The position numbers and the translations under genes were made by a program. Shown here one piece after another: positions 50,229 to 55,466 of a stretch of 64,000 bases of DNA; within the stretch, counting starts at the first letter, position 1; the number at the start of each line of letters is the position of its first letter. The notes under the pieces are model-generated. The model worked only from the letters and a program-made list of their open reading frames with translations, was not told the DNA's origin and made no database searches. Source of the stretch: Brevibacillus agri (lineage in GTDB: Bacteria; Bacillota; Bacilli; Brevibacillales; Brevibacillaceae); assembly GCF_004117055.1 (NCBI RefSeq), contig NZ_CP026363.1, forward strand, positions 5,008,501 to 5,072,500, read 5' to 3'.

Positions 50229-50678
50229 ATGCCGAGCCAATCCGGTCTTACTGATTTTGAACAGCTCTACATCCAGGTGCAGCGAAGTGTCTCAGCAAAA
50301 TGGCACAAGCGGCTGGACCCGCTCGTCTCCGCGTCGCAAGCCATGCTTCTGCGGATGCTGGATAAAAACGGTCCGCAAAAAGCGTCGGCTCTGGCCGAGC
50401 TTTTGCAGATCACTCCCGGAGCAGTGACCAGCCTTTCCGATAAACTGATCGCCTGCGGTTACGCCAGCCGCAGCCGGGTCAGCCACGATCGCCGGGTAGT
50501 CTACCTGGAAATTACCGAGAAGGGAAAAGCGATTTTGCAGCAATACAGAGTGGAACTGAAAAAAACGATCGGAGACTTGTTTGCCGGGCTGTCGGAAGAA
50601 GACCTTCAGCACCTGAACCGCATCTACAGGCAAGTCTTGCTTAACATCGAACAGCGAAGAGAGGAGAATCACGCATGA
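50229..50678 (+). CDS. MarR family transcriptional regulator
   Basis: A 149-residue winged-helix regulator. The HTH is KASALAELLQITPGAVTSLS and the wing follows as CGYASRSRVSHDRRVVYLEI. Terminal helices form the dimer. ATG has CAGGAG upstream. It overlaps the MFS exporter gene by four bases (ATGA), so it almost surely represses that exporter and its own operon, and releases DNA when a toxic ligand binds. Confidence 0.93.
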   Translation: MPSQSGLTDFEQLYIQVQRSVSAKWHKRLDPLVSASQAMLLRMLDKNGPQKASALAELLQITPGAVTSLSDKLIACGYASRSRVSHDRRVVYLEITEKGKAILQQYRVELKKTIGDLFAGLSEEDLQHLNRIYRQVLLNIEQRREENHA

Positions 50679-52342
50679 ACGGGTTAACCGAAAAAAAGAA
50701 AGTGACGATCATGATCGCGATCATCACGGCGATGTTCTTTTCCGCGATCAACCAAACGATCATCGGCGTCGCCATGCCGCGCATTATCGCCAAGCTGGGC
50801 GGCATGGATTATTACTCTTGGGCCATCACCATTTACTTGCTGACTTCCACCGTCGCTTCCGTCCTGGTCGGCAAGCTGTCGGACATTTACGGGCGCAAGC
50901 CGTTTATTTTGGCCGGGATCGGGCTGTTCAGCATCGGCGCTTTGCTATCCGGCTTTTCCGCCACGATCTTTCAGTTGATCGCCTATCGCGCCATTCAAGG
51001 GGCAGGTGCCGGTATCATCATGTCCACCGCCTTCACCGCCATGGGCGACCTGTATGAGCCTCGCGAGCGAGCCAAATGGACCGGAGTCATGAGCGCGGTA
51101 TTCGGCGTTTCCAGCGTCGCGGGTCCGCTCCTCGGCGGATATATTGTCGATCATCTCGACTGGCATTGGGTATTCTGGATTTTCCTGCCGATCGGGCTGA
51201 TCGCCTTCACCTTGATTTTGCTTCATTTTCCGCAGGTGGAAAAACGCCAGGGCGAATCCGTCGACTACTTCGGCTCCCTGTTCTTGACGACGACCATCGT
51301 TCCGATGCTGCTTGCTTTTTCCTGGGCAGGAGAAGGCCTGCACAAATACGCCTGGGGCTCCTGGCAAATTCTCGGCCTCCTGGCTGTCACCGTCGTGTCC
51401 TTGCTCGTGTTCCTGTGGGTCGAGACGCGGGTAAAAACACCTGTGCTGCCGCTTGGCTTGTTTAAAAACAGCATTTTCACCGTCTCCAATCTGGTCGGCT
51501 TTTTCCTGAATGCCGGGATGATGGGAGCGATCATCTACGTTCCGTTTTTTGTCCAGGGCGTAAAAGGAATCTCGCCTACCATGGCAGGCTACGTCGCCAT
51601 GCCGATGTCGATTGCCATGCTCGTGACGTCTGCGCTCGCCGGACAATTGATGACCAAAACAGGCAAATACAAAAAGATGGCGATCAGCGGGCTGCTCGTC
51701 ATGACGCTCGGCATGGTGCTGATGTACTTCATGGTGCCGACCACGCCGATTTATTTGCTCGTGCTGTACATGATCGTGCTCGGCCTGGGCATGGGCATCG
51801 CGATGCCCGTCTTCTCCTTGACTGTGCAAAACGCAGTCGCACCGCAGGAGCTGGGTGTCGCCACCGCTACCTCCCAGTTGTTCCGCAACCTGGGCGGTAC
51901 GATCGGGATTGCCGTCATGGGCAGCGTCATGAGCGCCAGCATGTCTGCAAAAATGAACCAGCTCTCGGCTACCATGAGCCAGGGCGCTGCCTCGATGCCT
52001 GCTGATCCGGCGTTGGCTGAAAAGCTGTCGCTGTTCACCAATCCACAAAATTTGCTCGATCAGCCCAAAATCGAAGCGGCGCTGCACAGCTTGCCGCCTG
52101 AGTCGCAGACCGTGTTTGCCCACATGCTGGACACGATCCGCGAAGCGATGAGCTACGGCATTACGACCACCTTTTTGACCGGAGCAATTGTCGCTGGCTT
52201 TGCGGTCGTGATCGCGCTGTTCCTGAAAGAAATCCCGCTGCGCAGCCAAAACACCCCGGAGCAAAAAAAATCGTCCGAAAACGAAAAGCGGGCGACAAGT
52301 ACCGCCGAATGGGACGGTGCGCAGGCTGCAGGAAAAGCTTGA
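50675..52342 (+). CDS. MFS drug exporter, DHA2 (EmrB/QacA) family
   Basis: A 555-residue membrane transporter with 14 predicted helices. Motif A is in LVGKLSDIYGRKPFILAGIG and motif C in GVSSVAGPLLGGYIVD. D/R motifs are in AMFFSAINQTIIGVAMPRII. It would export drugs or other toxic compounds using the proton gradient. It is coupled to the upstream MarR gene. The polar C-terminal tail (QKKSSENEKRATSTAEW) is cytoplasmic. A terminator lies 27 bases downstream. Confidence 0.93.
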   Translation: MNGLTEKKKVTIMIAIITAMFFSAINQTIIGVAMPRIIAKLGGMDYYSWAITIYLLTSTVASVLVGKLSDIYGRKPFILAGIGLFSIGALLSGFSATIFQLIAYRAIQGAGAGIIMSTAFTAMGDLYEPRERAKWTGVMSAVFGVSSVAGPLLGGYIVDHLDWHWVFWIFLPIGLIAFTLILLHFPQVEKRQGESVDYFGSLFLTTTIVPMLLAFSWAGEGLHKYAWGSWQILGLLAVTVVSLLVFLWVETRVKTPVLPLGLFKNSIFTVSNLVGFFLNAGMMGAIIYVPFFVQGVKGISPTMAGYVAMPMSIAMLVTSALAGQLMTKTGKYKKMAISGLLVMTLGMVLMYFMVPTTPIYLLVLYMIVLGLGMGIAMPVFSLTVQNAVAPQELGVATATSQLFRNLGGTIGIAVMGSVMSASMSAKMNQLSATMSQGAASMPADPALAEKLSLFTNPQNLLDQPKIEAALHSLPPESQTVFAHMLDTIREAMSYGITTTFLTGAIVAGFAVVIALFLKEIPLRSQNTPEQKKSSENEKRATSTAEWDGAQAAGKA

Positions 52343-52360
52343 GAGTAAGACATATTTATT

Positions 52361-52562
52361 ATAGAAGAAAAAGGGGAGCACACTGACGTGCACCCCTTTT
52401 TTGTTGCCCGACACTCCGGTCGCTATGCTCGTTTTACAGCCGCGCTCTGCCCGTCCGGATCGCATGGGCATAGTCCATGCGCCCGGCTTCCTCTGCGAGT
52501 TTGGCCGCTTTTTCATAATCATACGGAAGCAGGGAAGCAGGACGTACTCCACTTTCCAGGAG
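52361..52562. repeat. Left part of a split tandem copy of the metallophosphoesterase gene 3' end
   Basis: This 202-base stretch matches 54636-54828, the terminator and last 40 or so codons of the metallophosphoesterase gene, with few differences. It also has a small duplication (GCAGGGAA) near 52530. It carries no intact gene. The remainder of this copy is at 54590-54632, on the other side of a 2-kb insert. Confidence 0.88.
52369..52404. terminator. Terminator after the MFS gene
   Basis: AAGGGG-GCAC and GTGC-CCCCTT pair, with A and T runs outside. It originated as the duplicated terminator of the metallophosphoesterase gene and now also serves the MFS gene. Confidence 0.75.
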
Positions 52563-52786
52563 CACTCGCGGGCAAGGGAACTCGTATGGGAACTGTACAA
52601 AGCTGCTTGTTTTAGTTCAATACGATTTCGAGAACTCTCTTGAATAAAGGATTTTTTACATTATTTTGAAATAGAACGCAGGTCCTGTTCCCTGTTAATT
52701 CCAATTATGATATATTTTTTATGGATTTTGTTTCACAATAGAATTCACAAATAGAAACATGACAATTCCTAAATGGGGTGACGAAG

Positions 52787-53326
52787 ATGAACCTGTTAAA
52801 AAACTTTCTATTATTATTGTTGATCTTAGTGGGAATTAGCGGATGTGGGGGGGCCACTGACAATAAGGAAGAGAATAGTAGTGTCACTGAAAATCCAATT
52901 AGCAAGCAGGGAAGTGCAATGATTGGAGCAGACACTATTAAATTATATGAATTAAGCGGTAATCAAAATCTCAAAGACCAATTCAAATTTGCGTTTGACC
53001 CAACAGTTCCCCAAGAGATTAAATACTACAAAAACGGTGAGACAGTTACCATCGATTTTGGTGAAACAGTATATGATAACATAACTATTTTGGACATTCT
53101 CCTAAATTCTAAAGGTGAACAATTATATACGGATAAAGAAATCAAGAATGTTGCCTTTACCCGGATAGACAATAAATATCAATTCAAATTAGAGAAGCAC
53201 TTCGCTTCTGCTTTAAATTCGAACGATGAACCGTGTCAAACGGTTTATAGAGGTTTTCGAATCAATGCTTATAAAGATGATAAGGAATATCCATTTGGAT
53301 TTGTAATAAAAACAGATGCTTACTAA
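52787..53326 (+). CDS. AT-rich lipoprotein of unknown function
   Basis: A 179-residue protein. The signal peptide (MNLLKNFLLLLLILVGI) ends in lipobox SGC, so it is lipid-anchored outside the membrane. The rest is beta-rich (IKYYKNGETVTIDFGETVYD; NKYQFKLEKHFASALN; RINAYKDDKEYPFGFVIKT) and not recognised. ATG 52787 is near GGGGTGA; a GTG at 52778 is also possible. It is the first of two genes in the AT-rich insert. Confidence 0.7.
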   Translation: MNLLKNFLLLLLILVGISGCGGATDNKEENSSVTENPISKQGSAMIGADTIKLYELSGNQNLKDQFKFAFDPTVPQEIKYYKNGETVTIDFGETVYDNITILDILLNSKGEQLYTDKEIKNVAFTRIDNKYQFKLEKHFASALNSNDEPCQTVYRGFRINAYKDDKEYPFGFVIKTDAY

Positions 53327-53505
53327 TGCTTTCGAATTGAAACAAAGTTGCTCATTTGAACTAAGGAAACAGATAATCATTTTTGCTCATCAAAGAATCA
53401 AACCATATATGAAATCTAATGCGATGGGAGGTTAGATTTTAGAACAACTTTCAAGATTGACCATTTCTTTATTTTTTCCAAATCGTATGAAAAGGAAGGA
53501 AAGGT

Positions 53506-54495
53506 ATGAAATTATTTAAGAGAGCTTTGCCCGTGTTTTTATTAGCGATAAGCTTAGTCGCACCTGCTAGTGCAGAAAAAGTTGGCGGATATGAGTACCC
53601 CGTGAAACCCGGAACAACTGAGTGGAAAGCACTTGAAAGCAAAATGGAACGCCAAAAGGTAAGCCAAATACCTGAGGATGTTTTGGAACAATTGTCAACC
53701 GAAGAGCTTGTTGAAACTGTTTTAGACTATCCGTTCCTGATCGACATGTATGCATACGATTCTTTTGAACAAGGTTTTTCTGCTGTTTCATCCAATTTCA
53801 ACGGTCTAAAGGAACTGCTGAAAAGAGAAGATGCTGCTTCGAAGCTACTTGAGAAATACAAAGTGACAAAAGAATCGAAGGGAGTTAAGAAAGCATCTTC
53901 AGATGAAATGTTAGACTTGAAGAATCTTGAAATTATTTTAGAACAAAGTGAGATTAAAGAGAAGTTATCTCCAAACGAAGTAGAAGAAGTGGAAGAGCTT
54001 ACGGAAGAACCAAAACGGGCAGCGGCTGCTATATATGTAAAGACACCAAAGGGCACTAAGGTGGAAGTGTTGCAACTAGGGGAACGTTTATCTTCTGCGG
54101 AGATTAAAGCTCTGGATCGGGAGGTTGAAAGGGCATATCCTCGTACTACTCTCCTAAGATCAGCTACAACAAATTACAATTGTCATTCCTATGCTTGGTA
54201 CAGTACTTCTTCTAGCAACAAATATTGGATGAATGACCCTGGCGCCTATATGACAGATGGGAGTTATAAAAAAAGGAGTTCTGCTTCTGGAGATAGCAAA
54301 ATTTACTACGATGTAAGAGGTAATGAACACACTGGGATAGTTACGACAGTTTATTCTGGCCCACCTGCACCTGGAAAAGATCAAGCAAGTATGATTAAAG
54401 TTAAATCCAAATGGGGGCAATTAGGATTAGTAGAACATATGGCCGATGATTGCCCGTATTATACGAGTGACTCAGATTTAGAATTTTACAAGTAA
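53506..54495 (+). CDS. Secreted papain-like (NlpC/CHAP-type) putative cysteine peptidase
   Basis: A 329-residue protein. Signal peptide: MKLFKRALPVFLLAISLVAP ending ASA. Residues about 30-190 form a helical propeptide-like region (LLKREDAASKLLEKYKVTKE; acidic EVEEVEELTEE). The C-terminal 120 residues carry a cysteine in NYNCHSYAWYS and a histidine in GNEHTGIVTTV, with KSKWGQLGLVEHMADDCPYY. This is the Cys-His order of papain-like NlpC/CHAP folds. I infer cell-wall or amide hydrolysis outside the cell, with the target unknown. ATG follows AGGAAAGG. The second gene of the AT-rich insert. Confidence 0.7.
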   Translation: MKLFKRALPVFLLAISLVAPASAEKVGGYEYPVKPGTTEWKALESKMERQKVSQIPEDVLEQLSTEELVETVLDYPFLIDMYAYDSFEQGFSAVSSNFNGLKELLKREDAASKLLEKYKVTKESKGVKKASSDEMLDLKNLEIILEQSEIKEKLSPNEVEEVEELTEEPKRAAAAIYVKTPKGTKVEVLQLGERLSSAEIKALDREVERAYPRTTLLRSATTNYNCHSYAWYSTSSSNKYWMNDPGAYMTDGSYKKRSSASGDSKIYYDVRGNEHTGIVTTVYSGPPAPGKDQASMIKVKSKWGQLGLVEHMADDCPYYTSDSDLEFYK

Positions 54496-54589
54496 TTAAT
54501 CCAAATTTCGAAAGTATCTTGGAGAACTACTTTTAGGTGTGAAATCCAAGGTACTTTCTCTTTTTTTGGTAAAGGGAGAATTTCACCTT

Positions 54590-54632
54590 GTGGACGTCGC
54601 ATACTTGGCGTACGGCGTCAATGACTCCATGA
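54590..54632. repeat. Right part of the split tandem copy
   Basis: These 43 bases match 54841-54883, inside the metallophosphoesterase gene, with about 5 differences. Together with 52361-52562 they form one old copy of the gene's 3' end. The intact copy begins just 3 bases further at 54636. Confidence 0.85.
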
Positions 54633-54644
54633 CATATAGAAGAA

Positions 54645-54678
54645 AAAGGGGAGCACATCGACGTGCCCCCCTTTTTTG
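54645..54678 (-). terminator. Terminator of the metallophosphoesterase gene
   Basis: On the minus strand AAGGGGGGCAC and GTGCTCCCCTT form a stem with TTTCTTC beyond. It is about 30 bases past the stop codon at 54708. Confidence 0.8.
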
Positions 54679-54707
54679 TTGCCCGGCCCTCGGCCGCTAT
54701 GCTCGTT

Positions 54708-55466
54708 TTACAACCGCGCTCTGCCCGTCCGGATCGCATGGGCATAGTCCATGCGCCCGGCTTCCTCTGCGAGTTTGGCCGCTTTTTCATAATCATACGG
54801 AAGCAGGATGTGCTCCACTTTCCAGGAGTCTCCTTGGCGCGTGGCCGTCGCATACTTCGCGTGCGGGGTCAACGACTCCATGAAATGCGGATGGGGCTTC
54901 TCTTCAAAGTAAGCGGGCAGCCCGACACTCCCCGGATTGACGATCCATTTTCCATCCGGCAGCCACACCGATCTGTGCACGTGCGTATGTCCGCAAAAAA
55001 TGACGTTCTGCGGTACATTCGCCAGCTCAATCATCAGTTCGGTGACGCTTTTCGCGTCAGTCCCGTACGGAGCGACCCGCTCCATGAGATACTCATCGTC
55101 CGCAAAAGGCGTTCCATGGCAGAACAAAAGGTCCTCGTAAACCCACTGCTTGCGAAACGTGCGGAGCCAGTCGAGCACGTCTTCGCGCAGCAGCGGCTTC
55201 ACATGCTGAAAAGTGGGGGAAGCCAGCACCCCCTCTAGCAAATAGCGGTCGCAGTTGCCCATAATGTGGACGACATCCGTGCGCCGCATCAGCAGCTCCG
55301 CGGTTTGCACCGGGGCAATCGGGCCAAACAGCGCGTCTCCGAGGTTCACAATCGTCTGAATCCCCCGCGCGTCAATGTCCTGCAAAACCGCCTCGAGCGC
55401 GAAGACATTGCTATGTATGTCAGAAATGACGGCGATGGCATGGTTCTGGTTTTGATGCTGATTCAA
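54708..55466 (-). CDS. Calcineurin-like metallophosphoesterase (YfcE/MJ0936 type)
   Basis: A 252-residue cytoplasmic phosphodiesterase-type protein. The metal motifs are all present: AVISDIHSN, VNLGDALFG, MGNCD, a lone histidine in LFCHGTPFADD, and IFCGHTHVHRSVWL then VNPGSVGLP. It would hydrolyse phosphodiester or phosphoester bonds; the natural substrate is unknown. The last 60 or so codons are duplicated downstream, split by an AT-rich insert. Confidence 0.9.
   Translation of the reverse strand: MNQHQNQNHAIAVISDIHSNVFALEAVLQDIDARGIQTIVNLGDALFGPIAPVQTAELLMRRTDVVHIMGNCDRYLLEGVLASPTFQHVKPLLREDVLDWLRTFRKQWVYEDLLFCHGTPFADDEYLMERVAPYGTDAKSVTELMIELANVPQNVIFCGHTHVHRSVWLPDGKWIVNPGSVGLPAYFEEKPHPHFMESLTPHAKYATATRQGDSWKVEHILLPYDYEKAAKLAEEAGRMDYAHAIRTGRARL

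What the first reader, a model, noticed from the sequence alone, without database searches (positions are those of the whole stretch)
52361..54883. AT-rich two-gene insert lying inside a tandem duplication of a gene end
The 3' end of the metallophosphoesterase gene plus its terminator (54636-54883) has a tandem second copy. That second copy is split into 52361-52562 and 54590-54632 by a 2-kb AT-rich segment encoding a lipoprotein and a papain-like secreted protein. Only about 12 bases are missing at the split. The unit looks like acquired DNA that entered next to a gene whose end was duplicated, as integrating elements do with their target gene. No integrase or terminal repeat was found in the insert.
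Basis: partly seen in the sequence, partly recalled or inferred. Interest (0 to 1): 0.68.

Follow-up and report, generated by a model that had tools for sequence, protein, structure and literature searches.

The report
Acquired gene pair beside duplicated gene end
An AT-rich pair of acquired genes, for a lipoprotein and an unnamed secreted enzyme-like protein, sits in a decaying extra copy of a neighbouring gene's end; the layout looks like ordinary gene gain plus a small duplication, though the gene pair belongs to uncatalogued protein families.

Summary
The end of the metallophosphoesterase gene (mpe) plus its terminator (54636-54883) has a second copy, split by a 2,027-bp AT-rich segment (36.8% GC; GC3 about 0.33 against about 0.7 in the flanks). 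Relatives show that insert and duplication are separable. Species G017 has no insert but its own 3 x 116-bp array of the mpe end. Species G013 has the same left junction and the lipoprotein gene, but one decayed mpe end and no mpe. Lipoprotein and MFS divergence (dS) between G000 and G013 are alike (0.32, 0.28), so the insert predates their split. The two mpe-end copies differ by 6-7%, against 17-19% from G013, so either the duplication is younger than the insert or the copies were homogenised. No integrase, terminal repeats or att-like structure was found. The MFS/mpe gap carries unrelated extra genes in other species, without duplication. I read this as ordinary gene turnover between two convergent genes plus an independent small duplication. 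The most interesting part is the cargo: a sporadic secreted Cys-His protein family, uncatalogued by Pfam or NCBIfam, found next to the same lipoprotein family in one distant lineage and beside other lipoproteins elsewhere.

The parts
50675..52342 (+). MFS efflux permease (DHA2/EmrB type), left neighbour, convergent with mpe
   Evidence: ORF; Pfam MFS_1 4.7e-61 and NCBIfam EmrB; 94% identical in G013 and 90% in G017
52361..52562 (-). Copy A, larger part: duplicated terminator hairpin (about 52368-52401) plus decayed last codons of mpe, frameshifted by an 8-bp duplication
   Evidence: terminator-like hairpin also found
52563..54589 (+). AT-rich insert, GC 0.367
   Evidence: left junction shared with G013 (14/16 match, reached by 19 of 5000 shuffles)
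52787..53326 (+). Lipoprotein (179 aa, lipobox ISGC), purifying selection, dN/dS about 0.23-0.30
   Evidence: homologs G013 87%, G003 69%; dN/dS; no Pfam family
53506..54495 (+). Secreted protein (329 aa, signal peptide by eye) with YNCHSYAW...HTGIV...SKWGxxGxxxH...PY motif; putative cysteine hydrolase
   Evidence: relatives; Pfam DUF7689 only below cut-off
54511..54567 (+). Terminator-like hairpin with T run after the secreted-protein gene (stem 54511-54523 / 54545-54557)
   Evidence: read directly; the loop is too long for the scan
54590..54632 (-). Copy A', the 43-bp remainder of the duplicated mpe end on the far side of the insert
54636..54883 (-). Copy B: intact mpe 3' end plus terminator (hairpin 54643-54676)
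54708..55466 (-). mpe, YfcE-like/calcineurin-like metallophosphoesterase, intact
   Evidence: Pfam Metallophos_2 1.7e-19; orthologs at 58-77% identity

Best explanation
This is two ordinary events at a permissive site. (1) Before G000 and G013 diverged, an AT-rich segment with the lipoprotein gene, and probably the secreted Cys-His gene too, entered the 3' end of mpe or a spare copy of it, between two convergent genes (MFS -> <- mpe) that share a bidirectional terminator. It entered by illegitimate recombination; no element-encoded machinery is seen. (2) A roughly 250-bp tandem duplication of the mpe end plus terminator, joined at about 2 bp of microhomology, gives mpe an intact end and leaves each convergent gene its own terminator. 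The duplication either came first, with later gene conversion, or came second, restoring mpe from an uninterrupted allele through homology on one side and an illegitimate join on the other. Shown: the duplication, its decay, the insert's composition, inheritance of the lipoprotein gene with MFS, and the separability of insert and duplication. Inferred: the recombination mechanism, the order of events, and arrival of both genes together. Functionally, the lipoprotein is kept by selection. The secreted protein is probably a cell-surface cysteine hydrolase, with the lipoprotein as its surface-anchored partner; this is a guess from gene linkage.
For: Repeat structure and its uniqueness in the window. 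GC 0.367 and GC3 0.32-0.33 against about 0.7 in the flanks. Secreted gene in 1 of 26 genus genomes, lipoprotein strongly in 3 of 26. G013 keeps MFS, a decayed mpe end, the insert's left edge and the lipoprotein. dS of lipoprotein 0.32 and of MFS 0.28 between G000 and G013, lipoprotein dN/dS 0.23. A-B distance 6.8% against 17-19% to G013, and a 103-bp stretch without substitutions, p = 0.005. G017 has an independent 3 x 116-bp array of the mpe end. The MFS/mpe gap is empty in G004, G011 and G023, holds a 200-222 aa gene in G001, G005, G006 and G018, and a four-gene block in G022 and G018, with no mpe-end repeat in the genomes tested.
Against: G013 has lost everything from just after the lipoprotein to the pilD-like gene, so it cannot show whether it ever had the second mpe end or the secreted gene. 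Only one genome per species was available, so strain-level intermediates are unseen. The shared left junction rests on a short match (14/16) plus the better-aligned stretch just upstream of the lipoprotein gene.
Confidence: 0.72

Rival explanations
1. A site-specific integrating element, or relic of one, uses the mpe 3' end as its attachment site, carries a copy of the gene end, and restores the gene on entry.
For: The gene is intact and the second copy of its end lies beyond it, as is common at att sites; AT-rich cargo.
Against: The cargo splits the second copy instead of lying between two copies. No recombinase ORF or terminal repeats in the insert. G013 shares the left junction without a demonstrable second copy. 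Other cargo in the same gap has no gene-end copies. The insert shows no second genomic copy in G000.
Confidence: 0.07
2. Campbell-type single-crossover integration of a small circle holding [43 bp - cargo - 202 bp] into the mpe end, giving insert and duplication in one step.
For: The product of such a crossover is exactly the observed order. Copies differ by 6-10%, which fits DNA from a sister lineage.
Against: No replication gene and no such circle known. The insert junction is older than the divergence of the copies. Formally equivalent to a tandem duplication, so not needed.
Confidence: 0.1
3. Duplication first: a tandem duplication created a spare gene end, the insert landed in it neutrally, and gene conversion later kept the copies alike.
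For: Tandem duplication of this gene end also happened separately in G017. A 103-bp stretch without substitutions suggests conversion, p = 0.005. No loss of mpe function is needed.
Against: Even outside the clean stretch A and B differ by about 14/133 (10.5%), less than expected if they had separated before the G000/G013 split.
Confidence: 0.4
4. Insert first: the insert broke the sole mpe end. G013 then lost mpe, and the G000 lineage regained an intact end by recombination with an uninterrupted allele, homologous on the mpe side and joined at about 2 bp of microhomology on the other.
For: A-B divergence is smaller than the G000-G013 split while the insert is shared across it. G013 lacks mpe. 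Homology-facilitated illegitimate recombination is a documented process (PMC3240628).
Against: Gene conversion gives the same distances. It needs a viable mpe-negative phase, although several genus members lack mpe.
Confidence: 0.4

Closest known systems
Gene gain at flexible positions between convergently transcribed core genes (small genomic islets)
   Same: Different unrelated cargo at the same MFS/mpe gap in several species; composition unlike the host; no mobility genes
   Different: Here one flank also carries a partial tandem duplicate of the neighbouring gene end
Homology-facilitated illegitimate recombination and transformation-made tandem duplications (PMC3240628, PMC3784515)
   Same: One homologous side and one microhomology join can leave a partial tandem duplicate next to acquired DNA
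   Different: Mechanism inferred from footprint only; the duplications described in PMC3784515 are about 100-900 kb, here about 250 bp
Integrative elements that target and restore a gene's 3' end
   Same: Intact gene plus a second copy of its end near foreign DNA
   Different: No integrase, no att-like core bracketing the cargo, cargo inside the extra copy, age order does not fit
Cys-His hydrolases (papain clan, NlpC/P60, CHAP) and Pfam DUF7689
   Same: Invariant Cys followed by a later invariant His in an H(S/T)(G/A)IV context, secretion signal
   Different: No Pfam or NCBIfam family above cut-off; the AlphaFold model is too weak to test the fold

Membership tests
Site-specific integrative element / genomic island | Encodes an integrase or other recombinase | tested here: not met
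   Only two ORFs over 100 aa on the coding strand of the insert, neither a recombinase
Site-specific integrative element / genomic island | Cargo bracketed by direct repeats of the target gene end | tested here: not met
   The repeat copy is split by the cargo; both copies lie in tandem
Site-specific integrative element / genomic island | Same element with the same ends elsewhere or in relatives | tested here: not met
   Only the lipoprotein part recurs: G013 at the same site, G003 in another context
Transposon / IS | Terminal inverted repeats and target-site duplication | tested here: not met
   No inverted repeat at 52563/54589; no flanking short repeat by eye
NlpC/P60, CHAP or papain-like cysteine peptidases | Significant match to a family model or solved structure | tested here: not met
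   DUF7689 E 0.038, below cut-off; no Pfam family for the relatives; no credible PDB match
NlpC/P60, CHAP or papain-like cysteine peptidases | Conserved Cys and His in order | tested here: met
   C226, H275 and H311 invariant in the nine-sequence alignment
NlpC/P60, CHAP or papain-like cysteine peptidases | Papain-type fold | tested here: inconclusive
   Mean pLDDT 45.8, pTM 0.39; catalytic part below 40
Effector-immunity (toxin-inhibitor) pair | Conserved linkage of secreted enzyme and lipoprotein partner | tested here: inconclusive
   Same lipoprotein family next to a secreted-protein remnant in G344:C84; unrelated lipoproteins adjacent in G384/G219 and G344/G366; none in three loci
Effector-immunity (toxin-inhibitor) pair | Enzyme harms cells or proteins and lipoprotein neutralises it | not testable with these tools
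   Needs expression and binding assays

The most novel reading that the evidence does not exclude
The insert is a transferable two-gene surface module: a secreted cysteine hydrolase of an undescribed family with a cognate lipoprotein that guards the producer's own surface. Relatives that keep only the lipoprotein (G013, G003, G060) would carry orphan protection genes.
Probability: 0.2. Interest if true: 0.55.

Novelty: new member of a known kind. Interest (0 to 1): 0.3.

Why it matters
As a genome structure it is a readable case of gene gain between convergent genes in which insert and flanking duplication can be separated by comparing species. If the module reading is true, it adds an uncatalogued secreted Cys-His family with a lipoprotein partner, spread thinly over Firmicutes and Bacteroidetes, as a candidate for interbacterial antagonism or surface processing.

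Tried and rejected
Integrase, IS, tRNA or Rfam explanations: no recombinase ORF, no tRNA in the window, no Rfam match at gathering strength. Plasmid or phage origin: only 24-37% identical relatives of the secreted protein on three plasmids and one unverified phage scaffold, no plasmid match for the lipoprotein, none in IMG/VR. A gene-end duplication made by every cargo at this gap: not seen in the other species tested. Orphan mpe end in G024: read as a deletion remnant of mpe, not an insertion footprint. Lipoprotein as a known protease inhibitor (chagasin or BsuPI type, a memory lead): no Pfam match. Structure route: both AlphaFold models were too weak, so no fold search was run.

Full report
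OBSERVATION. The repeat is real. 52361-52562 matches 54636-54828, and 54590-54632 matches 54841-54883. A self-comparison of the window finds these two pieces and nothing else at E <= 1e-6. The aligned copies have 14 substitutions and 9 gap columns in 245 columns; one indel is an 8-bp repeat that frameshifts copy A. Between the pieces lie 2,027 bases at 36.8% GC. The 2-kb stretch starting at 52601 is the lowest-GC 2 kb in the window. They hold a 179-aa lipoprotein gene and a 329-aa secreted-protein gene with GC3 0.32-0.33; MFS, mpe and psiE have 0.69-0.74. By eye, the bases missing at the split are 12, or 5 if the insert's last seven bases (TCACCTT) are the remnant of TCTCCTT. The tandem join CCATGA/CATATAGAAG shares about two bases with both parents (read).

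THE SITE IN RELATIVES. The window's genome is G000, and 26 genomes of its genus were searched. The genus is unnamed by the tools; Brevibacillus is my unverified guess. mpe is present in most, with orthologs at 58-77% protein identity. MFS and mpe are direct neighbours in G004, G011 and G023. In G001, G005, G006 and G018 a 200-222 aa gene lies between them; in G022 and G018 a block of four genes (sugar epimerase-like, glycosyltransferase-like, response regulator, sensor kinase) lies there. These names are from sequence appearance and were not profiled. None of those tested repeats the mpe end. G017 has no insert but three 116-bp tandem copies of its mpe end, 97% matching. G024 keeps only an orphan mpe end. 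So the gap between these convergent genes is a place of repeated gene gain, mpe is often lost, and its end has been tandemly copied at least twice, with and without an insert.

AGE OF THE INSERT. G013 is the closest relative by MFS (94%). It carries MFS, a decayed single mpe end with the terminator, the insert's left edge (14 of 16 bases, reached by 19 of 5000 shuffles), the lipoprotein's upstream region and the lipoprotein gene (89% DNA). It then jumps to the pilD-like gene; the secreted gene, mpe, psiE and the pil genes between are not there. Synonymous divergence between G000 and G013 is 0.32 for the lipoprotein and 0.28 for MFS, with lipoprotein dN/dS 0.23. The lipoprotein was therefore most likely inherited with its neighbours and is under purifying selection. 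The secreted gene occurs in G000 alone within the genus. Whether it came in the same event cannot be told, because G013 is deleted there.

ORDER OF EVENTS. In the stretch shared by all three sequences (118 sites), A and B differ at 6.8%, A and G013 at 16.9%, B and G013 at 18.6%. A and B are thus closer to each other than to G013, although the insert in A is shared with G013. Either the duplication is younger than the insert, and copy B was restored from an uninterrupted allele, or it is older and the copies were homogenised. A 103-bp stretch without substitutions (p = 0.005) supports some gene conversion. Both A and B carry derived bases against the other species, so the duplication is not very recent. 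I cannot choose between the two orders. Both are built from known processes: tandem duplication at microhomology, and integration by homology on one side with an illegitimate join on the other (PMC3240628; see also PMC3784515).

WHAT THE LAYOUT DOES. The duplicated unit includes a bidirectional terminator hairpin (54643-54676 and its copy at about 52368-52401). As it stands, MFS ends into one copy, mpe into the other, and the secreted gene has its own terminator-like hairpin (54511-54567, by eye). The duplication may simply have kept both old genes properly ended around the insert. This is inference.

THE CARGO. The secreted protein belongs to a sparse family: 8 of 398 genomes across the phylum, the window's own included, Vagococcus salmoninarum and a Clostridiaceae bacterium, and plasmids of Parabacteroides, Flavonifractor and Hymenobacter. 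C226, H275 and H311 (within YNCHSYAW, HSGIV and SKWGxxGxxxH) are invariant in a nine-sequence alignment, which suggests a cysteine hydrolase. No Pfam or NCBIfam model reaches its cut-off, and the structure model is too weak to test the fold. 'Papain-like' therefore remains a lead. Relatives of the lipoprotein occur in 9 of 398 phylum genomes, the window's own included. In G344, contig 84, a lipoprotein relative lies directly after a remnant of the secreted protein (HSGIV...SKWGQLGVYQH...CPY, E 4e-12) on the same strand. In G384, G219, G344 contig 6 and G366, other lipoproteins directly follow the secreted gene. In Vagococcus, Clostridiaceae M8S5 and G405 none does. Against a local rate of 5.3% lipoprotein ORFs, three of six independent loci with an adjacent lipoprotein has p about 0.02, after the fact. 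A functional pair, perhaps a surface enzyme with its membrane-anchored partner or inhibitor, is a reasonable hypothesis and no more.

VERDICT. The acquired-DNA reading is supported; the integrating-element analogy is not. The structure is an ordinary, fairly old gene gain between convergent genes plus a small gene-end duplication. The cargo families are uncatalogued and worth a look.

Noticed in passing
L036:6686-7030 (G017): Three 116-bp tandem copies (97%) of the mpe 3' end in a species without the insert.
   Followed up: yes
L105:5430-6161 (G344 contig 84): Remnant of the secreted Cys-His protein directly upstream of a relative of the window lipoprotein, in a distant genome.
   Followed up: partly
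L102:6733-7209, L103:6147-6668, L118:5381-6427, L104:6682-7710: Lipoprotein genes of two other kinds directly downstream of relatives of the secreted protein, nearly touching or overlapping it.
   Followed up: partly
L041:2407-5504, L090:1552-5668, L042:4-gene block beside mpe: Four-gene block (epimerase-like, glycosyltransferase-like, response regulator, sensor kinase) next to mpe, lying between MFS and mpe in G022 and G018.
   Followed up: no
L037:44-4355 (G013): CRISPR-Cas genes (Cas7/Cas4/Cas1/Cas2-like by appearance) with an ORF repeating 'SHPTRMRGLK', probably a translated CRISPR array, near the G013 deletion.
   Followed up: no
L077:4971-6862 (Parabacteroides plasmid): The secreted-protein relative is split into two ORFs, the second with a lipobox-like start, on a plasmid.
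   Followed up: no
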